DNA of 64,000 nt from Actinoplanes octamycinicus (GTDB lineage Bacteria; Actinomycetota; Actinomycetes; Mycobacteriales; Micromonosporaceae), in assembly GCF_014205225.1 (NCBI RefSeq), contig NZ_JACHNB010000001.1, positions 1,054,001-1,118,000 on the forward strand, read 5' to 3'. A program made the position numbers and the translations under genes. The notes under the pieces are model-generated. The model was not told the origin of the DNA. It made no database searches and saw only the letters and a list, made by a program, of their open reading frames with translations. Each line of letters opens with the position of its first letter. Position 1 is the first letter of the stretch. This document shows positions 26,597-54,294 of this stretch, one piece after another.

Positions 26597-26710
26597 GCCC
26601 GCGCTGAGGAAAGTGGAGGGGACGGGGCCGCTGTCACACAGCGTTGCGGACTAGGGTATGTGCCCGTAGTCACCCGTCCGCCCACCCTCAGATCAACCCG
26701 GAGGTCAACC

Positions 26711-27592
26711 GTGACCAGCCAGTCCGACGAGCCCGAGGCGTCCGCGCCGGTGGCCGAGAAGTCCTCAGCGGAAGGACTCAACGGGCGTGAGCTCTGGGAG
26801 GAGGTCCGCGTCGAGCCGGTCGAGATCGCTCTCCCCGGCAGTGTCGGCCTGACCCTCCGGGCGTACCGGAAGGTCTCCGAGCTGACCCCGACCGAGATCG
26901 AGGCCGAGGAGGACGACCCCTTCGACACGCGCAAGCGCGCCGCCCTGGACGAGGACGGCGAGGAGGGCGTCATCGTCGACGAGGAGTACGAGGCGCTGCT
27001 CGCCGAGGGCGACGAGGACGAGAAGTCCGGCGACGAGACGTCCGACAAGGCCGAAGGGTCCGACTCCGACGACGAGTCGGAGGAGGCCAAGGGCCAGCCG
27101 GACGACGAGGAAGTACCCATGTTCCTCAGTCACAAGGGCCGCCTGCTCGCCTTCAAGAACGCCGAAGCGCTGGTCTCCTTCATTCGTTCGGGTGCTCCGC
27201 ACGATCTCGCACAATTGGACACCTGGGGCGACCTGGCGGAGCGGGTACAGTCGAGCGACATCGACCCGCTGCCGGAGGAGCGCTACGAACTCGACCTCGT
27301 GGTGGAGAACCTGCGTGGCGGGCACGACACGTGGGATCTGCCGCTGTTGATCGCGGCCGGCGAGGTGTCCCGGGATCTCGGGTACGCGCTCCGGCTCAAG
27401 CCGGTGATCCTGGCCCTGTCGCCCGGTTCCCCGCTCGACGACCTGGACGAGTCCCTCCGTGCCGCGCAGAGCGGTGGTATGGGCGGTTTCTTCGGTCGTC
27501 GGCGATTGAAGAAAATCGGGGCACAACAGGCGAGTCTCGGCTGGCGTTCGGTGATCGGCAAGATCTCTGCTGCTGTGGACTGGCGTGACTGA
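26711..27592 (+). CDS. Conserved actinobacterial protein of unknown function, acidic
   Basis: 293 residues, not recognised by function. The N-terminal 30 residues are Ser/Ala/Glu-rich. A segment of about residues 20-60 looks folded (ELWEEVRVEPVEIALPG). A highly acidic low-complexity stretch follows (about 75-135, mostly Asp, Glu, Ser). The C-terminal half is a compact domain with FLSHKGRLLAFKNAEALVSF, ENLRGGHDTWDLPLLIAAGE and a basic GRRRLKKIG run before the VDWRD end. The GTG at 26711 is chosen for GGAGG at six bases. It is followed on the same strand, with a 64-base gap, by the IS110-like protein, so both may act together. Confidence 0.75.
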   Translation: MTSQSDEPEASAPVAEKSSAEGLNGRELWEEVRVEPVEIALPGSVGLTLRAYRKVSELTPTEIEAEEDDPFDTRKRAALDEDGEEGVIVDEEYEALLAEGDEDEKSGDETSDKAEGSDSDDESEEAKGQPDDEEVPMFLSHKGRLLAFKNAEALVSFIRSGAPHDLAQLDTWGDLAERVQSSDIDPLPEERYELDLVVENLRGGHDTWDLPLLIAAGEVSRDLGYALRLKPVILALSPGSPLDDLDESLRAAQSGGMGGFFGRRRLKKIGAQQASLGWRSVIGKISAAVDWRD

Positions 27593-27656: not shown

Positions 27657-29957
27657 GTGGCGCTCGTGCGCGTGTACTGCGGTCTGGCGTCGGCTGATGA
27701 TTCGGTGCGTTCGGCCTCGGCCGCGCCGCTGACCATCGCCGTGGTGGACGACGCAGGCCGGCTGCTCGGCGTCCATGAGATCAGCGACGACCCGGCGGGT
27801 TATGCCCAGCTGGGGACGCTTCTCGTGGAACGGACGACGGGATTCAGCGACGCGGCGGTGGCCGCCGACAGTGACGACCACATCGTCACCTCGCTGCTGA
27901 CCGCCGCCGGCCGGCCGCTGGTCGTGGTCGACGACGACGACGCCGACGACTTCGCCGAGCGCTTCTCGGACGACGACTCCCCCGAGGAGATCAACGCCCC
28001 GGCCGCCGCCCGGCGGGCGGTCGGGCTGGCCCGGGCCCTGCAGGCCGGCGCGATCGCCGCGGTGACCCTCCCCGCGCCGCGCGAGCTGGTCAGCTACAAG
28101 CCGGTCCTGGCCGCCCACGTGGCCATGCTGGTCGGGCGGAACGCGTCCGCGGTGGCGCTCCGCGAGGTGCTCCGCGAGCTCTACCCGGCCGCCCTGCGGG
28201 CCTACCCGGACCCGGCGCACCCGCTGGCCATGGCGGTCCTGGAGGCGGTCCCCGAGCCCGGCCGGCTGACCGGCCGGGGCGGCGACCCGGCCCAGGCCGT
28301 GCAGGACGTCGCCACCACGCTCGCCCGCTCCGGCGCCGGTGACCGGGACCAGGTGGTCGCCGCGGTCACCGCGCTGCAGGTGGCGATCAGCGAGTCGCCG
28401 CGCCGTGGCGGGGTCAACAAGTCGCTGGCGCCGGCCGCCGCCGAGGCGGTCCGGCACGCCATCGCCGCGGTCCGCACCTGCGACGAGGCCTGCGCCGCGC
28501 TGGTCGGCACGCTCGCCGCCCGCGGCGGCAGCCCGGCCGCCGAGCCGAATGTCGGCCGTCGCGCCGCCCGCCGGGCCGCCGAGCCCGCCGGGCTGCCGGC
28601 CCCGGCCGCCCCGGTCGAGGCGCCGTCCCGGTTCGGCCGTCGTGGCCGTCCCGAGCCGGCCGTCGCCGGCCTGGGCACCGGCCCGGCCACCCCGCAGCCG
28701 ATGAACGCTCCGCCGGTCGCCCCGGACCCGATCGCGCCGCCGCCGGTGGCGCCGGCCGCGGCCAACGGGCTCCCCAGCCGGTCCGGCGCGCCGGGCAACC
28801 GGCCGGTGTCGGTGCCCCCGCCCCCGCCGGGCATGACACCGATCACCCCGGGCACCCGGCCGGTGCCGGGCAGCCGGACGCCGGGTGGCCTGTCCACCCC
28901 GGTCTCGCCGGCGGCGCGCAACCCGGTCTCGGCCGGCGGCACGCCGAGTCCGGCCGACGCGGGCGAGCCGTTCCGCGCCACGCTCACCCACGCCGAGCTC
29001 AACCGGGCGCGGGCCGAGCGGCAGCGCACGGTGATCCCGGCCCGGCCGAACACGCGGACCACCCCGCCGCCCGCCGCGGCGGCCGGGACCACGACCGGCC
29101 CGACCGACTTCAGCCTGCCGATGCCGACGCCGCGTCCCGCCCAGGAGACGACGCCGGAGCCCGGCTCCCGGGCGAACTGGCCGCTGCTGAACGCCGGTGG
29201 CGACGACGCCGCGGTCAGCCCGCCGGTCTCGCCGGCCGCCTCCGGCGCCACGTCGTACGGGTCGGCCGCCGCCTCGGTCAGCCCGGCCGGTGGCGCCGAG
29301 GGCCGGATCCGGCCGCCGTGGCAGGACATGCCGAAGGAGCCGCCCGCCCTGCGGCTGGTGGAGTCCCAGCTCAACGGCGGTGGCCGGGCCAAGCTGCCGG
29401 GTCTCGACCAGCTCGGCGACCCGCCCCCGCTGCGGGTCGTCGACGGTGGCGCCCGCGGCGCCGACAGCCTGCCGCCCAGGGTGACCGCGCTGGACCGCAG
29501 CGCCACCCCGCCGGTCCCGGCCGACGGCAGCGACGGCGACCTGCTGATCTTCGCGGCCGCCCGGTCCGCCTGGTTCACCGGCGGTCCCTCCGGCGACTCG
29601 GGCAGCGTCGACTGGGCGAACCCGAACGACAGCGGCTGGCGTGCCGCGGAGAAGGCGGCCACCCCGGCCGTCGCCGCGGAGACCTCGGCCGGCCTGCCCA
29701 AGCGGGTGCCCCAGGCCAACCTGGTGCCCGGCTCCCCGCTGCGCGAGGAGCGGCCGCTGCGGATCGTCCGGGACGCGGCGTCGATCGCCGCGCACACCAC
29801 CGGGTACTTCCGTGGCTGGCGGCGCGGTCAGGAGATCGGCGGCTTCGCGATGGGTGGCCGCCCGGGCCGCGAGGCGGCCGGCGGGTGGGACTTCACCCGG
29901 GACCGTGAGGGCGCCGACGAGTACCGCAACAACGGCGCCGGTTACGGCGGCCGCTGA
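27657..29957 (+). CDS. IS110-like (DEDD fold) protein with degenerate active site, Pro-rich linker and conservon-kinase-like tail
   Basis: 766 residues. The N-terminal 165 or so follow the order of an IS110 transposase DEDD domain: VRVYCGLAS for strand 1, then LTIAVVDDAGRLLGVHEI, DPAGYAQLGTLL, AAVAADSDDHIVTSLLTAAG and ARRAVGLARALQAG. The acidic residues at the first and last catalytic positions are gone. Residues to about 300 are helical, then a Pro/Ala-rich linker runs to about 635. The tail (637-766) has SAWF, GWRAAEKAA, AGLPKRVPQANLVPG and YFRGWRRGQE, which parallel the C-terminus of the kinase at 32285. The GTG at 27657 has AGGAGG eight bases upstream; a GTG at 27585 overlapping the previous gene is possible but unsupported. 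Function unknown; transposition by it is unlikely. Confidence 0.75.
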   Translation: MALVRVYCGLASADDSVRSASAAPLTIAVVDDAGRLLGVHEISDDPAGYAQLGTLLVERTTGFSDAAVAADSDDHIVTSLLTAAGRPLVVVDDDDADDFAERFSDDDSPEEINAPAAARRAVGLARALQAGAIAAVTLPAPRELVSYKPVLAAHVAMLVGRNASAVALREVLRELYPAALRAYPDPAHPLAMAVLEAVPEPGRLTGRGGDPAQAVQDVATTLARSGAGDRDQVVAAVTALQVAISESPRRGGVNKSLAPAAAEAVRHAIAAVRTCDEACAALVGTLAARGGSPAAEPNVGRRAARRAAEPAGLPAPAAPVEAPSRFGRRGRPEPAVAGLGTGPATPQPMNAPPVAPDPIAPPPVAPAAANGLPSRSGAPGNRPVSVPPPPPGMTPITPGTRPVPGSRTPGGLSTPVSPAARNPVSAGGTPSPADAGEPFRATLTHAELNRARAERQRTVIPARPNTRTTPPPAAAAGTTTGPTDFSLPMPTPRPAQETTPEPGSRANWPLLNAGGDDAAVSPPVSPAASGATSYGSAAASVSPAGGAEGRIRPPWQDMPKEPPALRLVESQLNGGGRAKLPGLDQLGDPPPLRVVDGGARGADSLPPRVTALDRSATPPVPADGSDGDLLIFAAARSAWFTGGPSGDSGSVDWANPNDSGWRAAEKAATPAVAAETSAGLPKRVPQANLVPGSPLREERPLRIVRDAASIAAHTTGYFRGWRRGQEIGGFAMGGRPGREAAGGWDFTRDREGADEYRNNGAGYGGR

Positions 29958-30018: not shown

Positions 30019-30711
30019 ATGCGAGCGGTCATTTTCGACTTCTTCGGTACGCTCAGCGACCCCTCCGCCGAGGCCGAGCGGCTCGGCACGTTCGCCGTCA
30101 CCGCGGCCGCCCTGGGGGTGCCGGCCGACCGGTTCGGCGCGGTGATGGCGGCGACCTTCCGGCGCCGGGCGACCGGCGAGCACGGCGGGACCCGGGACAC
30201 CCTGCTGGCGATGGCCCGGGCGTGCGGGGTGGAACCGGGCGAGGCGCAGCTCGACGCGGCGCTGGCGAGCCACCGCGCGGGCGCTCAGATCGTCCGCAGG
30301 CCCCGTCCGGAGGCGCTGGCGGTACTGGACCGGGTACGCGAGCTCGGTTACGTCCTGGGGCTTCTCAGCGACTGTTCCAGTGAACTGTGCGAGGCGTGGG
30401 CGGAAACGCCGTACGCGGCCCGGATCGACGCCCCGGTCTTCTCCTGGCGCGAGGGCCGGCTCAAGCCCGACCCGCGGCTGTACGCCACGGTCGCCGAGCG
30501 GCTCGGCGTCGCCCCGGCGGAGTGCTGGTTCGTCGGCGACGGCGGCGGCCGGGAGCACCACGGCGCCCGGCAGGCCGGGATGCGGCCGGTGCTGATCACC
30601 AACGACGCCTACCCGGAGGTCCGGCACCTGCGCGCCGACCCGGACAGCTACCTGCCGCCGGACCGGCTGCCGGACCTGACCGGGCTGCCCGCACTGCTCG
30701 GACCGGCCTGA
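30019..30711 (+). CDS. HAD superfamily hydrolase
   Basis: 230 residues. Motif I is FDFFGTLSD with the nucleophile Asp, motif II the Ser in LLSDCSSE, motif III the Lys in GRLKPDPRLY and motif IV VGDGGGREHHGAR. The cap is helical and short. Such proteins are mainly phosphatases of small phosphorylated metabolites. The second motif I Asp is replaced by Phe, as in the haloacid dehalogenase-like FDxFGTL group, so phosphatase activity is likely but not certain. It is monocistronic, between two hairpins. Confidence 0.88.
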   Translation: MRAVIFDFFGTLSDPSAEAERLGTFAVTAAALGVPADRFGAVMAATFRRRATGEHGGTRDTLLAMARACGVEPGEAQLDAALASHRAGAQIVRRPRPEALAVLDRVRELGYVLGLLSDCSSELCEAWAETPYAARIDAPVFSWREGRLKPDPRLYATVAERLGVAPAECWFVGDGGGREHHGARQAGMRPVLITNDAYPEVRHLRADPDSYLPPDRLPDLTGLPALLGPA

Positions 30712-30821: not shown

Positions 30822-31433
30822 TCAGGCGGGCGCTACCGCGCGCGTGCGACGCATCGTCAGCACATACTCGACGAGCGAGATGAGGACGTTTTTCGTCGAC
30901 TCACGGTTGCGGGCGTCGCAGCTCACCACCGGCACGTCGCTCGAGATCGCCAGCGCGTCCCGGACGTCCTGCGGGTTGTGGTACTGCATGCCGTCGAAGC
31001 AGTTGATCGCCACCAGGTACGGCAGGCGACGGTGTTCGAAGAAGTCGATGGCGGCGAAGCAGTCGGCGAGCCGACGCGTGTCCACCATGACCACCGCACC
31101 GATCGCGCCCCGCACCAGCTCGTCCCACATGAACCAGAACCGGGTCTGGCCGGGGGTGCCGAACAGGTACAGGATCAGATCGCGATCGATGCTGATCCGG
31201 CCGAAGTCCATGGCGACGGTGGTGGTCATCTTGCCCGGCACCTGCCGGTTGTCATCGACGCCCACACCGGCCGAGGTCATGATCGCCTCGGTCGTCAGTG
31301 GGGTGATCTCCGAGACCGAGCCCACCAGCGTCGTCTTACCGACGCCGAAGCCACCGGCGATGACAATCTTCGCCGATGTCACGCGTCCGCCCGCAGCGGG
31401 ACGTTGCGACATGTCAGAGCCTGCGAAGTCCAC
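30822..31433 (-). CDS. cvnD: Conservon GTPase (CvnD-type ATP/GTP-binding protein)
   Basis: 203 residues, a Ras-like small GTPase of the bacterial MglA/CvnD type. The P-loop GGFGVGKTTLVG lies near residue 27, the switch region contains MTTTVAMDFGRI, and FGTPGQTRFWFMW is the G3 motif. The guanine-specificity NKxD motif is not canonical (AINCFDG). The GTG at 31433 overlaps the DUF742 gene by 20 bases and yields MDFAGSD, the usual start of this family. It is the last gene of the four-gene conservon, proposed from Streptomyces to work as a membrane-associated G-protein-like complex. Confidence 0.92.
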   Translation of the reverse strand: MDFAGSDMSQRPAAGGRVTSAKIVIAGGFGVGKTTLVGSVSEITPLTTEAIMTSAGVGVDDNRQVPGKMTTTVAMDFGRISIDRDLILYLFGTPGQTRFWFMWDELVRGAIGAVVMVDTRRLADCFAAIDFFEHRRLPYLVAINCFDGMQYHNPQDVRDALAISSDVPVVSCDARNRESTKNVLISLVEYVLTMRRTRAVAPA

Positions 31434-31800
31434 TCAGCACCCTTTCCAGCAGTTCCGTGCCTACCGCGTCGGTCTCGTCCTCTAGCGAGGTGGGCTCGTA
31501 CACCGCGAGCAGGCCGTCAGAGGCCATGTCGGCGACGATCACACGTGCCACACCGAGCGGCAGTTGCATGCGTGCGGCGATCTCGGCCAGCGACTGAACT
31601 CGGCCGCCGTCGCACATCGCCGCGATGTACTGATGCTCGCTTCCACCCTGCCCGCCGCGGATCATTCCCGATCGCCCGCGCACGGTTGTCTCGACCAGCG
31701 CTTCCAGCGCTATCTCAAGTTTGGGCCGGGTTCGACCACGGGTCACGGCATACGGCCTGACCAGCGCGCCGGTCGGCTCATCGCGTTCAGGCATTGTCAC
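31414..31800 (-). CDS. cvnC: DUF742 protein (CvnC-type)
   Basis: 128 residues. The DUF742 signature is clear: LVRPYAVTRGRT at the start and a winged-helix-like part with LAEIAARMQLPLGVARVIVADM and GLLAVYEP. It is thought to bridge the roadblock protein and the GTPase. The GTG at 31800 is preferred because GGAGG is spaced eight bases from it; a TTG at 31806 is too close and an ATG at 31794 is possible. A 77-base gap separates it from cvnB, wider than the overlaps elsewhere in this operon. Confidence 0.9.
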   Translation of the reverse strand: MTMPERDEPTGALVRPYAVTRGRTRPKLEIALEALVETTVRGRSGMIRGGQGGSEHQYIAAMCDGGRVQSLAEIAARMQLPLGVARVIVADMASDGLLAVYEPTSLEDETDAVGTELLERVLSGLRRL

Positions 31801-31883
31801 CGTCAACCCCTCCCTCGGCCACTCGAAGTGTATTGGTTCTCAAGTTTTTGGACAGTAGCCGGATGGGCCGGCTCACCGCGCCT

Positions 31884-32288
31884 TCAGCCCAGCACCCCGG
31901 CCGCGGAACGCGGCGCGGGAGTCAGCGCCTCGCCGACGCGGTCGACCAGCAGGGCCATCTCGTAGCCCACCTGCCCGACGTCGCAGCTGCGAGCCGCGAG
32001 CACCGCGAACGAGGAGCCGTCAGAAATGGACATCAGGAACAGGAACCCATTGTCCATCTCCACGACCGTCTGGAGAACAGCACCGCCCTCGAAGCACCGG
32101 GCCGCGCCCTGGGTCAGGCTGACCAGGCCGGACGCGATCGCCGCGAGCTGGTCCGCACGGTCCCGGGGGAGGTCCCGCGAGGCCGCCAGGAGCAGGCCGT
32201 CGGCGGAGACCGCGATCGCGTGCGCGACCCCGGGAACGCGGTCAGCAAAGTTGGCGAGAAGCCAACCGAGATCCTGCGTAGATGTCAT
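31884..32288 (-). CDS. cvnB: Roadblock/LC7 domain protein (CvnB-type)
   Basis: 134 residues, one roadblock/LC7 domain: [20 protein letters not shown] at the N-terminus and the central strand [16 protein letters not shown], then a long helix and the sheet with [23 protein letters not shown]. Such proteins are GTPase partners or activating proteins for MglA/CvnD. AAGGAG lies eight bases before the ATG. That ATG overlaps the stop of the sensor kinase gene (ATGA), so production is coupled to it. Confidence 0.93.
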
Positions 32289-35200
32289 GCCTCATGCTCC
32301 TTGCCAGCCTGCGAGGGCTGCTGCCCTCCCGGAGTCTCCTCCAGGTTGGTCGATTGTTCCTTGGTGCGACCGCGCTGCACACCCCGGTGGTACGCGGACA
32401 GCAGACCGCGGACCCCCTCGGGCGTACGGCGCTGGACGGAGTTACCGCCCCGGTCAACACCGCCGGGGACGAGTTGCGCCATCGGCGTGCGCTTCGGAAG
32501 GCCCGCCGTGGTGGTCGTGTCGATGGCGACTTCGGACGCCTTGCGCGCGGCCGACCAGCCTTCGTCGGCCGCGGTGTGCCACGGGTTGGAGGCCGGGGCC
32601 CCGCCACCGTAGGAACCGGCACCGGCCGCCGCGGGGGCGCCGACCGTGGCCGTGTCGAACTCCCGGGCCTCCGGGGAGGCCGCCTGCTGCGGCACGCCCG
32701 CGGTCCGAGCCGGCTCGCCGGTCGGGATCCGCTGCGAGACCACCGCCTCGTCCCCGCTGCCGGAGACGGACGGCTTGCCGCTGGTCGCCTGGGTCGTGGT
32801 GAACCAGGCCGACTCGAGCTCCCGGAAGATCGGCAGCTCCATGGTCTCGTCGGCGAACGGCACCGCGCCCTCCCGGGCCGGGGCCTGCGCCGCCGCGATC
32901 TGAGCCGCCGCGGCGGCCTGCGCGTCGGCGGCCGGAGCGCTCACCGGAGCGACCGCGTCGTAGGCCGGCGGGGCCGACGCGGGCAACGCCGCCATCGGCG
33001 GGTTGACCGGACGGGCCACCTCGGGCTGCGGCTCGGCGTTCTCCGGACGGTACCGCGGGATCTCGGCGGTCATGTCGAGCGCCGCGGCGAGGTTCTCCGG
33101 GACGTGCGGGGTGGCGCTCTCCCGGTCACCGGCGACCGGCGGCCAGGCCGGCGGCGCCGAGGCGAACGGGTTCGCCGAGACCGGGTCGACCGGGGCCGCG
33201 GAGACCGGCGGCGCGGACGGGACCGGCGGGGCCGAGGTCACCGGCGGCGCCGAGGTGACCGGCGGGGCCGACGGCACCGGCGGCGCGGACACCGGCGGCA
33301 TGAACGGGGTCCGGCCCTGGCTCTCCGGGTTGGCCGGGAGCTGGCGCGGAATGGTCGCGCCGAAGCCGTTCATCTCCCCGTCGGGACGCTGGTAGTCGTT
33401 GCCGTTGCGGCGCTGGGCCAGCTCGTCCAGCCCGGCGAAGCCCTGCGGGCCGGTGCTGATCGGGCCGGACGGGAGCGGCGGCAGCGGCTCGTTGCTGCGC
33501 GGGCCGAAGCCGTTCGCGCCACCGAAGCCGTTGGCGCCACCGAACCCGTTGGCCGAGCCGTTGAAGCCGTTGGAGCCGTTCGACCCGTTCAGCCCGCCGC
33601 CACCGAAACCGTTGGACGGCGCGGCGCCGGTCAGGTCGGACCAGGCCGGGACGCCACCGTTGGTGCCGTTCGCGGCGGGGTCGTACGGCCGGTTGCCGGG
33701 GAAGCCGCCGCGGCCGCTCTCCAGGGCCAGCGGCTCGCCGAACGACGGCATCGCGGCCGGCGGCGGCGCGTCGTAACCACCCGGGATGCGAGCGGAGCCG
33801 GCGCTGGCCAGGACGGAGACGGGCAGGCCCACCTCGGCGACGGTGCCACGCTCGCGGTCGGCCGGGCGGAGCTCGACCCGGACCGCGTGCCGGTTCGCCA
33901 GCCGGGCGACCACGACCAGGCCCATCATCCGGGAGACGGCGACGTCCACGGTCGGCGGGTTGGCCAGCCGCTCGTTCAGGTCGCGCAGCTGCTCGCGGCT
34001 GATGCCGATGCCGTGGTCCTCCACGGTGAGCACCGCGTTGTCGCCGACCCGGCGGGCCTCGACGAGCACGTTCGAGTTCGGCGGGGAGAAGGCGGTGGCG
34101 TTGTCGAAGAGCTCGGCGACCAGGTGGACCATGTCGTTGACGGCGTGCGCCGCCACCTCGATCTCCCGGTCGATGACGCCGAACTCGATCCGGGTGTAGT
34201 GCTCGACCTCGGACTGCGCGGCGCGCAGCACGTCGATCAGAGCGGCCGGCTCGCGCTGCACACGGGTGGAGTCGGCGCCGGCGAGGACCAGGAGGTTCTC
34301 GTCGTTGCGCCGCATCCGGGTGGCCAGGTGGTCGAGCTGGAAGAGCTCGGCCAGCCGGTCCGGGTCCTCCTCGCCGCGCTCCAGCCGGTCCAGGTGACCG
34401 ATCAGCCGGTCGACCAGGATCTGCGAACGGCGGGCGAGGTTGACGAACATGGTCGCGACCGAGGCCCGCAGGGCGGCCTGCTCGGCCGCGGTCCGGACCG
34501 CCTCCAGGTGGACCGCGTTGAACGCCTCGGTCACCTGCCCGAACTCGTCCCGGCTGCGCACCGGGAGGGGCTCGGCGATCTGGTCGGCGACCTGGGCCGG
34601 CGTGAGCGACGCGGAGAGCGCCGGGTCACGCAGCCGGGACACCGCGTGCGGCAGGCCGAACTGGGCCACCGCGAGCGCGCCCTGCCGCAGCTCCCGCAGC
34701 GAGCGGGCCATCGACCGGGCGACCAGCCAGGCGAACAGGATGGCCAGCAGCAGCATGCCGAGCAGGATGCTGGTCTCGACGAAGACCCGGCGGTTCGTGG
34801 TGTTCCGCAGCTCGGTGGCCTTGGCCACGATGTCCTTGTCGAGCTTCGACTCGACCTGGCGGAACGTGTTGTTGTAGCCGGTCATCGCCTTCTCGTACTC
34901 ATCCGTGGTGAGCACGTTGCGGTCGATGGTGGTGCCGGTGCTGCCGAGCAGCGGGCCGGTGAGGTTGGTGGCCTCCCGCTGCGCCGCGTTGTGGTCGGTG
35001 GTGTTGGTGAAGTACTCGAACTCGCCCTCGGCGGAGACCGACTCCAGCGTGCTCTTGGCCAGCTTGAAACCGGTGTCCGCGCTCAGGAACGCCTGACGCA
35101 GCGTCGGGGTGAATTCCTGGGCGCCGATCACCTGGTGACCGAGGTAGCGCTCGATGGAGATGTACTCCTTGGCGCGGGCCACCTCGGCGACCGCGCGGAG

Positions 35201-35824
35201 CCGGTCGCTCAGCGTGGTGTCGCTGGCCTGCTGGGCGGCCACGTCCCGGACCGCGAGCAGGTCGTCGATCAGCTTGGTGTACGTCCCGTCGACGCTGGTC
35301 GTGCTCTGCGTCTTGTTGGCCACCTGGCTGCGGAACGCGGCGAGGTCGGCCAGGTTGTGGTCCAGACGGGTGAGCAGGATGTCGACCCGGTCCGGCACGT
35401 CCTCCAGGGCGGCGCGCTGCTGCGCGTACGGCTGGTTGGCGGCCTCGACCTTGGGGTGCTCCTCGTTGTACTTCGCGATCCCGTACTTGAGGAGCTCGTC
35501 GTCGGGCTTGCCGCCGCGGAACTTCTTGTTCAGGTTGTCGTCGGTCGCGACGGCGATCATCATCGCGTAGGACCGCTCGGATTGAAGCTGGTCGACCAGC
35601 CCGCCGGCCGCCTCGGACAGTGCAGCGAGCGTCCGGGCGTTCTCGGCGTTGTCAGCCTCCTCGATGTGGTCGACCAGGCCGTTGACGCCGACGATGATCG
35701 TCGCCACGGTCGGGACCAGCATGATGAGGCCCAGCTTGGACCAGATGGGTAGGTCTCGCAGCCGACCCGTGGGTCGACGCAGACGCGACATGACGCCGTC
35801 CGCCTCACTAGGGCGCTTGCTCAC
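32285..35824 (-). CDS. cvnA: Nitrate/nitrite-sensing-type sensor histidine kinase of a conservon (CvnA-type)
   Basis: 1179 residues. In order: TM1 (about 31-51), an extracytoplasmic helical NIT-type sensor domain (about 60-330), TM2 (about 348-370), HAMP, a helical segment with [12 protein letters not shown] that could hold the phospho-accepting His (about 495), and a HATPase_c domain with DNATAFSPP (N box) and VEDHGIGIS (G1). A Pro/Ala/Gly-rich, Asn-rich tail of about 450 residues follows, ending in a conserved patch [15 protein letters not shown] plus YHRGVQRGR. The GTG at 35824 is preferred because AGGAGG is eight bases upstream; the ATG at 35854 lacks a site. No response regulator gene is adjacent, as expected for conservons. 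The ligand is unknown. Confidence 0.92.
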
Positions 35825-36280
35825 GTCACCGTCCTCCTGATTCGGACCCGGCATTCGGCTCGCCGGGCACCGCGCACGACCGACTCGCCGGGTCGGGCCC
35901 CCGAGATTCCATCACGACGAGTGTCAAAGAGAAAGACCAGGCGGACACGGACCGGTTGTGTGACGCGATGTTGCAACGTCGCAGTTGGACATCGCCGGTC
36001 TGAAATCACTACCTGTAGAGGTGCAGGTCTCTCAAGGTCACTCACGATGTCGGCGCGGCGTTGGGGGGTGGGCGCAGGCCGACGGGTCAGATCGTAGTCG
36101 ATCGCGACAGGAACGACGATGGCTCGGTGCCCCGCGATCGGCAAGGCAAGATGCCGGATTATGCCGAGTTTGTAGGCGGGAGTGTAGCCGAACGGTGGAC
36201 CCGGAGAACCGGACAGGCAATTTCGACCGACGTACGTTCGCCCGTATCCCGGAAAAGCGGAATACGGGGAAAGTCGGATT
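35825..36280. other. Intergenic region between conservon and adenosine deaminase genes
   Basis: A 456-base non-coding stretch. It should hold the conservon promoter on the minus strand and the 3' end of the adenosine deaminase transcript, which enters from the right. Apart from the hairpin at 36241-36268 I see no convincing gene, tRNA or repeat. Confidence 0.5.
36241..36268 (-). terminator. Hairpin downstream of adenosine deaminase
   Basis: CCCGTAT and ATACGGG arms plus three more pairs after one mismatch enclose the loop GAAAAG. It lies 13 bases beyond the add stop. It is moderately strong and has no T-tract. Confidence 0.45.
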
Positions 36281-53115: not shown

Positions 53116-54294
53116 ATGGGTCAGCTGATCATTGGAGTCGATCCGCACAAGCGGTCCGCGACGATCGAGATCATCAACGAGCGTGAACAGGTGCTGGCCC
53201 GTGGCAGGTACGGCACCGACACCGGTGGCTACCAGCAGATGCTCGCCGCCGGCCGCCGTCACGCCGGCCGGGTGTGGGCGGTCGAGGGCTGTAACGGCAT
53301 CGGCCGGCACCTGGCCCAGCGGCTGGTCGCCGACGGCGAAACCGTGCTGGACGTCCCGGCGAAACTCGCCGCGAAAGCCCGCAACTTTGACACCGGGCAC
53401 GGCCGTAAAACCGACGGTCACGACGCGCACCACATCGCGGTGACCGCCCTGCGCACCCCGGGCCTGCGCCGCGTTCACGCCGACGGCGCCACCGTCGCGC
53501 TGCGGCTGCTGGCCGACCGCCGCGACCAGCTCGGCGCCACCCGCACCGAGACCATCAACCGGCTGCACCAGCTACTGCTCGAACTGATCCCCGGCGGCGC
53601 GAAGAAGAACCTGACCACCGACCAGGCCCGCACCCTGCTCGAACGCGTCAGCGTCCCGGCCGGCGACATCGTCACCGCCACCCGCTATCAGCTGGCCGGC
53701 GACCTGGCCGACGAGCTCACCACCCTGGACACCAAGATCAAAGCAGCCAACCGGCAGCTGAAGACCGTGCTGGCCGCCACCGGCACCCAGCTGACCAGCC
53801 TCAACGGCATCGGCCCCTCCGGCGCCGCCCGCCTGCTCGGCGACATCGGCGACATCAGCCGCTTCCCGACCCGCGGGCACTTCGCCACCTGGAACGGCAC
53901 CGCCCCCATCGACGTGTCCTCCGGCGACAACCATCATCACCGGCTCAACCGGGCCGGGAACCGGCGCATCAACCGGGTCCTGCACATCATGGCCATCACC
54001 CAGCTCCGCTTCGACACCCCCGGCCGCGCCTACTACCAGCGCAAACGCGCCGAAGGCAAAACCGCGATGGAAGCCATGCGAGCGTTGAAACGACGCCTGT
54101 CCGACACCGTCTACCGCCAAATGATCAAAGACGACCACACGGCACAACAGACAGCGACGGGTCCGGGAGGACACACGGGGGCGACTCTGAACTCCAGCGC
54201 GGCCGACCCAAACCCCAAGATCGACACTTCGGAAAAGTCACAACCCGGACCCGCCAACCACCACCCTAAAACACCCCTCACACCAACCCCTTGA
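53116..54294 (+). CDS. IS110 family transposase (DEDD recombinase)
   Basis: 392 residues, apparently intact. The N-terminal DEDD domain shows GVDPHK (first Asp), AVEGCNGIG (Glu) and RKTDGHDAHH (last two Asp). A long coiled-coil-like helix follows, then the C-terminal Tnp domain with LNGIGPSGAARLLGDIG, WNGTAPIDVSSGD containing the candidate nucleophilic Ser, and NRAGNRRINRVLH. The ATG at 53116 places GVDPHK near residue 7, as is usual; a GTG at 53077 would add 13 residues. It ends in a Pro/Thr-rich tail of about 40 residues. It mobilises the element by RNA-guided recombination if active. Confidence 0.93.
   Translation: MGQLIIGVDPHKRSATIEIINEREQVLARGRYGTDTGGYQQMLAAGRRHAGRVWAVEGCNGIGRHLAQRLVADGETVLDVPAKLAAKARNFDTGHGRKTDGHDAHHIAVTALRTPGLRRVHADGATVALRLLADRRDQLGATRTETINRLHQLLLELIPGGAKKNLTTDQARTLLERVSVPAGDIVTATRYQLAGDLADELTTLDTKIKAANRQLKTVLAATGTQLTSLNGIGPSGAARLLGDIGDISRFPTRGHFATWNGTAPIDVSSGDNHHHRLNRAGNRRINRVLHIMAITQLRFDTPGRAYYQRKRAEGKTAMEAMRALKRRLSDTVYRQMIKDDHTAQQTATGPGGHTGATLNSSAADPNPKIDTSEKSQPGPANHHPKTPLTPTP

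What the first reader, a model, noticed from the sequence alone, without database searches (positions are those of the whole stretch)
29563..29957. C-terminal module shared between the IS110-like protein and the conservon sensor kinase
The last 130 residues here contain SAWF, GWRAAEKAA, AGLPKRVPQANLVPG and YFRGWRRGQE. The kinase encoded at 32285-35824 ends with [29 protein letters not shown] and YHRGVQRGR in the same order. Such a tail is a known feature of conservon kinases but has no reason to occur on a transposase-like protein. Two proteins 2.5 kb apart sharing a tail points to a common binding partner (for example the roadblock or DUF742 protein) and to a conservon accessory component not previously described.
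Basis: partly seen in the sequence, partly recalled or inferred. Interest (0 to 1): 0.75.

Follow-up and report, generated by a model that had tools for sequence, protein, structure and literature searches.

The report
Dead IS110 protein with kinase tail
A gene descended from a jumping-gene enzyme has lost its cutting residues, carries the same tail as the sensor kinase of a neighbouring bacterial G-protein switch, and in some lineages sits directly beside its own copy of the switch's roadblock protein, so it is probably an undescribed part of that signalling system.

Summary
The protein at 27657-29957 and the conservon kinase (32285-35854, minus strand) share four C-terminal boxes in the same order: xxIFxxxxSAWF, WxxxxDxGWxAA, GLPKRxPxAxLVPG and YxRGxxRGx (39% over 80 aa; 0 of 2000 shuffles; profile E=1e-17). 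On kinases the tail is known ("LPxR motif"). The new part is its other carrier. The head is an IS110 recombinase RuvC-like domain (PF01548) that lost the DEDD tetrad and the Tnp domain. The head was found in 119 of 121 genomes of the window's family; class samples gave no clear case outside it, though not every weak hit was read. Head-tail tails form one clade (99/95).

In 20 loci of divergent genera the gene is followed on the same strand by a second, distinct roadblock gene; five of these show no conservon in the ~20 kb fetched. In 69 others, including this window, a convergent conservon has its roadblock gene 1.2-8.3 kb away. The likeliest reading is a domesticated, catalytically dead IS110 protein that docks on a roadblock protein through a CvnA-type tail. 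Binding is inferred, not shown. Two second copies lack a roadblock neighbour.

The parts
27657..29957 (+). head-tail gene: IS110-derived head, Pro-rich linker, CvnA-type tail, C-terminal extension (about 766 aa if the GTG at 27657 behind a GGAGG is the start; the ORF tool lists 27585)
   Evidence: conserved block begins at about 27663
27663..28526 (+). degenerate IS110 RuvC-like (DEDD_Tnp_IS110) domain plus a predicted long C-terminal helix
   Evidence: profile hits ~420-aa ORFs; hhalign prob 97.9; PF01548 in 10 of 19 members; tetrad lost
28527..29534 (+). Pro/Ala-rich variable linker, low-confidence (disordered) in the model
29535..29576 (+). tail box 1 (GDLLIFAAARSAWF)
29613..29660 (+). tail box 2 (WANPNDSGWRAAEKAA)
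29691..29735 (+). tail box 3 (AGLPKRVPQANLVPG), holding the LPxR motif
29784..29831 (+). tail box 4 (IAAHTTGYFRGWRRGQ)
29832..29954 (+). C-terminal extension (EIGGFAMGGRPGREAAGGWDF...), seen in lineages without the second roadblock gene and, shortened, in L236
32285..35854 (-). conservon sensor kinase CvnA (NIT, HAMP, HATPase_c) with the homologous tail
32366..32581 (-). tail boxes 2-4 of the kinase
32801..32839 (-). tail box 1 of the kinase ([13 protein letters not shown])
   Evidence: sequence printed
31884..32288 (-). CvnB, roadblock/LC7 protein; proposed partner of both tails here
   Evidence: (PF03259 8.8e-23)
31414..31806 (-). CvnC, DUF742
30822..31433 (-). CvnD, small GTPase (PF03029, with weak Ras matches)
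26660..27592 (+). upstream co-directional gene, weakly SatS-like, that precedes head-tail in nearly all loci

Best explanation
The gene encodes a domesticated, catalytically dead IS110 recombinase head fused, apparently once in an ancestor of this family, to the C-terminal tail of a conservon kinase. It works as a soluble, non-kinase partner of a roadblock/LC7 protein: the disordered tail docks on the roadblock through the motifs that CvnA uses. In some divergent lineages the partner is a dedicated second roadblock (here called CvnB2) encoded directly downstream. In the crown lineage, including this window, CvnB2 is absent from the locus and the CvnB of the convergent conservon next door is the likely partner. 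By occupying or scaffolding CvnB, the protein would add a cytosolic input to the CvnD GTPase switch or compete with the kinase. The head probably supplies dimerisation and perhaps nucleic-acid binding. Shown: tail homology, IS110 descent, loss of the catalytic tetrad, one clade of head-tail tails, family-wide presence, roadblock linkage. Inferred: tail-roadblock binding, the partner switch, competition with CvnA, the role of the head.
For: Tail homology. Phylum sample: of 63 tail rows, 37 have E<1e-5; they are 2 head-tail genes and 35 conservon kinases (33 with the kinase core in the same ORF; for L100 and L101 the core lies outside the fetched DNA) (classified). IS110 descent: the head profile hits ~420-aa ORFs at 3e-11 and, once broadened, at down to 3e-33; 10 of 10 such class hits scanned are PF01548; L143 and L154 pass the PF01548 cut-off as whole proteins without PF02371; best PDB profile hit is IS621, E=0.023. 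Dead: D,E,D,D in 40 IS110-like ORFs against mostly A,D,A,R in 91 head-tail rows. Present in 119 of 121 family genomes. Head-tail tails one clade, 99/95. Linkage: of 94 head-tail loci, 89 have a roadblock gene on the stretch; in 20 it is CvnB2 with 19-176 bases between the tail and roadblock matches, in 69 only the CvnB of a convergent conservon. Six genomes hold 3-8 roadblock genes each. CvnA9 is reported to interact with CvnB9 and CvnC9 (PMC8510531 passages).
Against: No interaction was measured or modelled. The loci share ancestry, so the linkage counts are not independent; in most, the conservon neighbour may be inherited gene order beside the same upstream gene. Second copies L156 and L157 carry the tail without a roadblock nearby. 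CvnB2 is a separate clade from all sampled conservon CvnBs (100/100), so its binding surface may differ. CvnA is reported to contact CvnC as well. Box 1 was found, by a crude WF test, in only 12 of 31 kinase tails outside the family. Both structure models are of low confidence (pLDDT 58.8 and 50.2). The neighbouring kinase has a NIT sensor domain, whereas known accessory proteins overwhelmingly go with kinases that lack one (PMC13343842).
Confidence: 0.6

Rival explanations
1. The tail binds another shared partner, such as CvnC (DUF742), CvnD, or a membrane or pole component, and the roadblock genes are neighbours for other reasons.
For: CvnA9 is reported to interact with CvnC9 as well as CvnB9 (PMC8510531 passages). 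The tail is low-confidence in the model with one short helix, which would suit many partners. L156 and L157 lack a roadblock.
Against: In L143, L147, L148, L149 and L154 blastp with the window's proteins finds no DUF742 or GTPase gene in the ~20 kb fetched, yet the roadblock gene directly follows. In G307 (L149) another roadblock gene lies about 14 kb away, just outside the stretch, so a conservon may be near there.
Confidence: 0.2
2. The neighbourhood is mere inherited gene order: the protein took a kinase tail long ago for an unrelated role (for example localisation) and has nothing to do with conservon signalling.
For: The loci appear to descend from one event, and the same upstream gene precedes head-tail nearly everywhere. 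In some genomes no conservon is left in reach and head-tail stayed.
Against: The tail stays under constraint (dN/dS 0.28). Where no conservon is on a long stretch, a roadblock gene is, except around the two second copies. The C-terminal extension is seen where CvnB2 is absent (not in second copy L156) and in one locus with both.
Confidence: 0.14
3. It is an IS110 transposase, active or a decaying relic, and the tail is incidental.
For: PF01548 homology; IS110 copies are common in this genome (37 PF01548 matches).
Against: The first Asp of the tetrad is absent from every head-tail row that has a residue there, and no row keeps both of the last two. PF02371 is absent. Mostly one copy per genome in 119 of 121 genomes. 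Purifying selection.
Confidence: 0.03
4. The similarity is an accident of Ala/Gly/Pro composition.
For: Full-length blastp with composition adjustment and phmmer give no significant match.
Against: None of 2000 shuffles exceeds 73 against 129; four ordered boxes; profile E=1e-17; the tail recurs in conservon kinases of other families.
Confidence: 0.01

Closest known systems
CvnA conservon histidine kinases and their C-terminal LPxR extension (Wuichet and Sogaard-Andersen 2014, PMC4316618, passages seen)
   Same: Homologous tail at the C terminus; encoded beside roadblock genes.
   Different: Head-tail has no HAMP or HATPase match; an IS110-derived head stands in place of the kinase.
Conservon accessory proteins CvnE (cytochrome P450) and CvnF (GAF) (PMC13343842, abstract and sections 3, 6, 15 read)
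   Same: Extra protein encoded next to a conservon and proposed to modulate it.
   Different: Different fold, not in the cvn operon, shares the kinase's tail, and sits beside a kinase that has its own NIT sensor domain.
IS110 family recombinases (IS621, ISCro4; PMC11208160, passages seen)
   Same: RuvC-like N-terminal domain PF01548 and the LREFYPAAL-type segment after it.
   Different: No DEDD tetrad, no PF02371 Tnp domain, longer, mostly one copy per genome.
MglB/MfpD/CvnB roadblock proteins (PDB 9hef and 3leq matched by a profile of CvnB2 plus the window's CvnB)
   Same: CvnB2 is a Robl_LC7 protein (4 of 4 scanned).
   Different: CvnB2 is a separate clade and follows head-tail instead of a kinase.
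Piv/MooV invertases (recalled; seen here only as a cited title in PMC11208160)
   Same: IS110-related protein serving the host.
   Different: By that title Piv needs its conserved motifs for catalysis; this protein has lost the tetrad.

Membership tests
IS110 family recombinase | PF01548 RuvC-like domain homology | tested here: met
   10 of 19 heads match PF01548, best 1.5e-10; whole proteins L143 29.7 and L154 39.0 bits against cut-off 29, L150 17.6, and no match for L141, L147, L160. The window's own protein has no PF01548 match; for it the case rests on profiles.
IS110 family recombinase | intact DEDD catalytic tetrad | tested here: not met
   commonest residues A, D, A, R in 91 rows against D, E, D, D in 40 IS110-like ORFs; no row has the first Asp, none has both of the last two
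IS110 family recombinase | PF02371 Tnp domain with the conserved serine | tested here: not met
   no match in the window protein or in six relatives; present in control IS110 ORFs L057 and 7 of 10 class hits
IS110 family recombinase | mobile, with a non-coding bridge RNA region | not tested
   mostly one copy per genome; no search for a bridge RNA was made
conservon kinase CvnA | C-terminal tail with LPxR motif | tested here: met
conservon kinase CvnA | kinase core (HAMP/HATPase_c) | tested here: not met
   no Pfam match in the head-tail protein
conservon accessory protein | encoded in or beside a conservon | tested here: met
   of 94 head-tail loci, 69 have a conservon and no CvnB2, 11 have both, 5 have CvnB2 and no conservon in ~20 kb, 4 have CvnB2 on stretches too short to tell, 3 are contig ends, 2 are second copies without roadblock
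conservon accessory protein | accompanies a CvnA without sensory domain (pattern reported for CvnE/CvnF) | tested here: not met
   window kinase has PF08376 NIT, 2.1e-33
conservon accessory protein | physically or genetically acts with a Cvn protein | not testable with these tools
   needs binding or genetics

The most novel reading that the evidence does not exclude
A transposon-derived, catalytically dead nucleic-acid-binding protein has been wired into a bacterial Ras-like GTPase switch by grafting the sensor kinase's docking tail onto it. CvnB or CvnB2 would then receive input from DNA or RNA state (or be tethered to the nucleoid) in competition with the membrane kinase: a bacterial G-protein pathway with a transposon-derived input arm.
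Probability: 0.2. Interest if true: 0.9.

Novelty: new variant of a known kind. Interest (0 to 1): 0.7.

Why it matters
How conservon kinases talk to the roadblock and GTPase proteins is open, and the kinase tail is a motif without an assigned function (the authors of PMC4316618 are cautious about one). A soluble protein carrying only that tail, encoded beside its own roadblock gene in some lineages, is a natural experiment that makes the question testable: test the tail against the roadblock. It would also be a family-wide domestication of IS110 for signalling. No such case came up in the paper searches made (listings; open-licence PMC only).

Tried and rejected
Chance composition: rejected by shuffles and profiles. 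Active or decaying transposase: rejected by loss of the tetrad, absence of PF02371 and purifying selection. Recent gene conversion between the neighbouring tails: not supported, since head-tail tails are one clade apart from the kinases (99/95; the tool warns of few columns and long branches). CvnB2 as a recent duplicate of the neighbouring CvnB: not supported, separate clade. AlphaFold2 of the head (pLDDT 58.8) and of the whole protein (50.2) was too weak to rest on; the two best Foldseek hits of the head model are ISCro4 chains (IS110 family) at E=1.8e-3 and 2.3e-3, none reaches 1e-3, and rmsd is about 21 with TM-scores of 0.25-0.28. Tail and PDB: nothing better than E=5.1. Neighbours of the second copies L156 and L157: no roadblock found; a resolvase-like ORF, by eye, lies near L157.

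Limits of the searches: the genome search scores only some candidates per genome (20, 7, 17, 6, up to 53). One search missed four genomes that one search found with full scoring and a broader profile, so absence is weak; (45 genomes, up to 53 scored) again found head-tail only in G000.

Rows dropped before counts: an out-of-frame row (L043) was dropped between A1 and A2; L158 (an IS110) was left out of the 94 head-tail loci; L035 was left out of A11 because its head-tail gene is frame-broken. Three family genomes with weak head hits (G343, G363, G402) were not fetched to check for the tail. Two pairs of loci (L033/L226, L040/L227) are probably the same assemblies, from equal contig lengths, so loci are not all independent. 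Labels f1, g1 and so on are the tool's unnamed handles.
Full report
WHAT WAS CLAIMED. I tested sequence, origin, distribution and neighbourhood.

THE TAIL IS REAL. Tail against tail the two proteins are 39% identical over 80 aa. The local score is 129 against at most 73 in 2000 shuffles that keep composition. Full-length blastp with composition adjustment and phmmer miss it; I put this down to the Pro/Ala-rich linkers. Profiles built from seven kinase tails and eight head-tail tails match over the whole length with E=1e-17. The module has four boxes: box 1 xxIFxxxxSAWF, box 2 WxxxxDxGWxAA, box 3 GLPKRxPxAxLVPG, box 4 YxRGxxRGx.

WHO CARRIES THE TAIL. In an even sample of 296 genomes of the phylum, a mixed profile of boxes 2-4 gives 63 matches in 32 genomes, with 20 candidates scored per genome at most. 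I fetched or already held DNA for all 63 rows and classified them. Of the 37 rows with E<1e-5, two are head-tail genes and 35 are conservon kinases: in 33 the kinase core (blastp to the window's CvnA) is in the same ORF, and for L100 and L101 the core lies outside the fetched DNA but CvnB, CvnC and CvnD follow. Of the 26 weaker rows, 15 are kinases by the same test and 11 are chance or unclear. So in this sample every strong carrier outside the family is a conservon kinase or stands where one is expected. [quoted passage not shown] Box 1 is less general: within 230 residues before the tail, a WF was found in 12 of 31 kinase tails from outside the family, for example in forms such as TPLYDTLETNWF and LPIFEAARSDWF.

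WHAT THE HEAD IS. The window protein alone has no PF01548 match, but a profile of 12 heads hits ~420-aa ORFs of other actinobacteria at 3e-11, and one of these, L057, is an IS110 transposase by Pfam (PF01548 3e-38, PF02371 1.5e-13). Head against IS110 profile: probability 97.9, E=3e-13. With divergent family members included, the profile hits IS110-sized ORFs at down to 3e-33; 10 of 10 of these that I scanned are PF01548, 7 of them with PF02371. Of 19 heads, 10 match PF01548, best 1.5e-10. As whole proteins L143 and L154 pass the curated cut-off, L150 scores below it, and L141, L147 and L160 do not match; none has PF02371. The best PDB match by profile is IS621 (E=0.023), and the two best Foldseek hits of a low-confidence model are ISCro4. 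In an alignment of 40 IS110-like ORFs and 91 head-tail rows, the catalytic D, E, D, D columns read mostly A, D, A, R in head-tail. The first Asp is absent from every head-tail row that has a residue there; four rows have Asp at the third position and four others at the fourth, none at both. None of the 40 IS110-like ORFs has the tail. The gene is therefore a catalytically dead IS110 head whose Tnp half is missing and which ends in a linker and a CvnA-type tail.

DISTRIBUTION. Forty-six relatives in named genomes carry titles of Micromonosporaceae genera (family assignment from general knowledge). In 121 genomes of the window's family the head profile finds 115, and a broader profile with full scoring finds 4 of the 6 misses: 119 of 121. 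The two left are assemblies of 780 and 440 contigs. Three weak hits (G343, G363, G402) were not fetched to confirm the tail. In 394 genomes of the class, 37 match at E<=1e-4; the three of this family stand far apart (E<=2e-103), the next best being 3e-33, and the others are mostly IS110-sized ORFs, not all fetched. Only 6 candidates per genome were scored there, so absence is weak evidence; a repeat on 45 class genomes with up to 53 scored found head-tail only in G000 and four hits of 208-451 aa in three other genomes. Head-tail tails form one clade apart from all kinases (99/95; the tool warns of few columns and long branches), which favours one graft that is not refreshed from the neighbour. 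Selection is purifying: dN/dS 0.23 head, 0.45 linker, 0.28 tail, 0.18 extension.

THE NEIGHBOURHOOD. I examined 95 loci: the window, the 46 loci and 48 stretches from unnamed family genomes. L158 turned out to be an IS110, leaving 94 head-tail loci. In 89 of them a roadblock/LC7 gene is on the stretch. The exceptions are three contig ends (L015, L036, L051) and two second copies in genomes that also have a normal one (L156; L157, which is frame-broken). L043, L047 and L050 start inside the gene; their conservons are seen. In 69 of the 89 the only roadblock is the CvnB of a convergent conservon, its match 1.2-8.3 kb from the tail, as in the window. In 20 (L141-L155, L221-L224, L236) a second roadblock gene, CvnB2 (38-44% identical to the window's CvnB for the 15 measured; PF03259 in 4 of 4 scanned), follows head-tail on the same strand with 19-176 bases between the two matches. 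Eleven of these 20 also have the convergent conservon, four stretches are too short to tell, and five (L143, L147, L148, L149, L154) show no conservon kinase, DUF742 or GTPase gene by blastp in the ~20 kb fetched. Six genomes examined hold only 3-8 roadblock genes each; in G307 (L149) one of them lies about 14 kb from the head-tail gene, just outside the stretch, so a conservon may be near there. CvnB2 is a clade of its own (100/100). A conserved C-terminal extension after box 4 is found in the head-tail genes without CvnB2 that were printed, except second copy L156, and in shortened form in L236, which has both; it is absent from the other 19 with CvnB2.

MECHANISM. Most likely the tail is a docking element for roadblock proteins. 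CvnA has it at its C terminus with cvnB downstream; head-tail has it at its C terminus with cvnB2 downstream. CvnA9 is reported to interact with CvnB9 and CvnC9 (PMC8510531, passages; the primary paper was not seen). AlphaFold2 gives the tail region pLDDT below 50 apart from isolated residues, with one short helix in box 2, in keeping with linear docking motifs. In lineages without CvnB2, the neighbouring CvnB would serve both the kinase and head-tail. What the head adds is open: the model shows a long helix (residues 253-288) suggestive of dimerisation, and IS110 heads belong to nucleic-acid enzymes. The direction of the effect on the GTPase cannot be told from sequence.

RIVALS. The tail could bind CvnC, CvnD or a localisation factor; or the neighbourhood could be gene order inherited from one ancestor beside the same upstream gene. 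The five loci with a roadblock but no conservon in reach, the constraint on the tail, and the use of this tail by conservon kinases elsewhere argue against these but do not exclude them. The known accessory proteins CvnE and CvnF overwhelmingly go with kinases lacking a sensor domain (PMC13343842, section 6); the kinase here has one, so head-tail is not simply one of them.

NOVELTY. The kinase tail is known. An IS110-derived, dead protein carrying it, present family-wide and linked to roadblock genes, did not appear in any of the paper searches made (listings); these cover only open-licence PubMed Central text. I file it as a new variant of a known kind: a domesticated transposase serving as a conservon-linked component.

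Noticed in passing
window about 53131-53592, + strand: An IS110 copy (PF01548) lies in the window by its genome coordinates; G000 has 37 PF01548 matches, many of equal score.
   Followed up: partly
window 26660-27592: The gene upstream of head-tail, weakly SatS-like (NF050072, 1.5e-6, far below its cut-off), precedes head-tail in nearly all loci, so the pair is a deep syntenic unit; a recalled relation to mycobacterial Rv3311 was not tested.
   Followed up: partly
window 31884-32288 and relatives: CvnB of this conservon is 93-100% identical across the loci that hold it, strikingly conserved, as one might expect if it serves more than one partner.
   Followed up: partly
   Followed up: partly
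L236 (G321): Possible intermediate: has CvnB2, the convergent conservon and a shortened C-terminal extension.
   Followed up: no
L195-L202 and the matching rows (family f4): Two tail-bearing conservon kinases about 5 kb apart on one strand in eight genomes (tandem conservons).
   Followed up: no
window 30019-30711: A small ORF between head-tail and the conservon (HAD-like by eye); similar ORFs are found in only some relatives.
   Followed up: no
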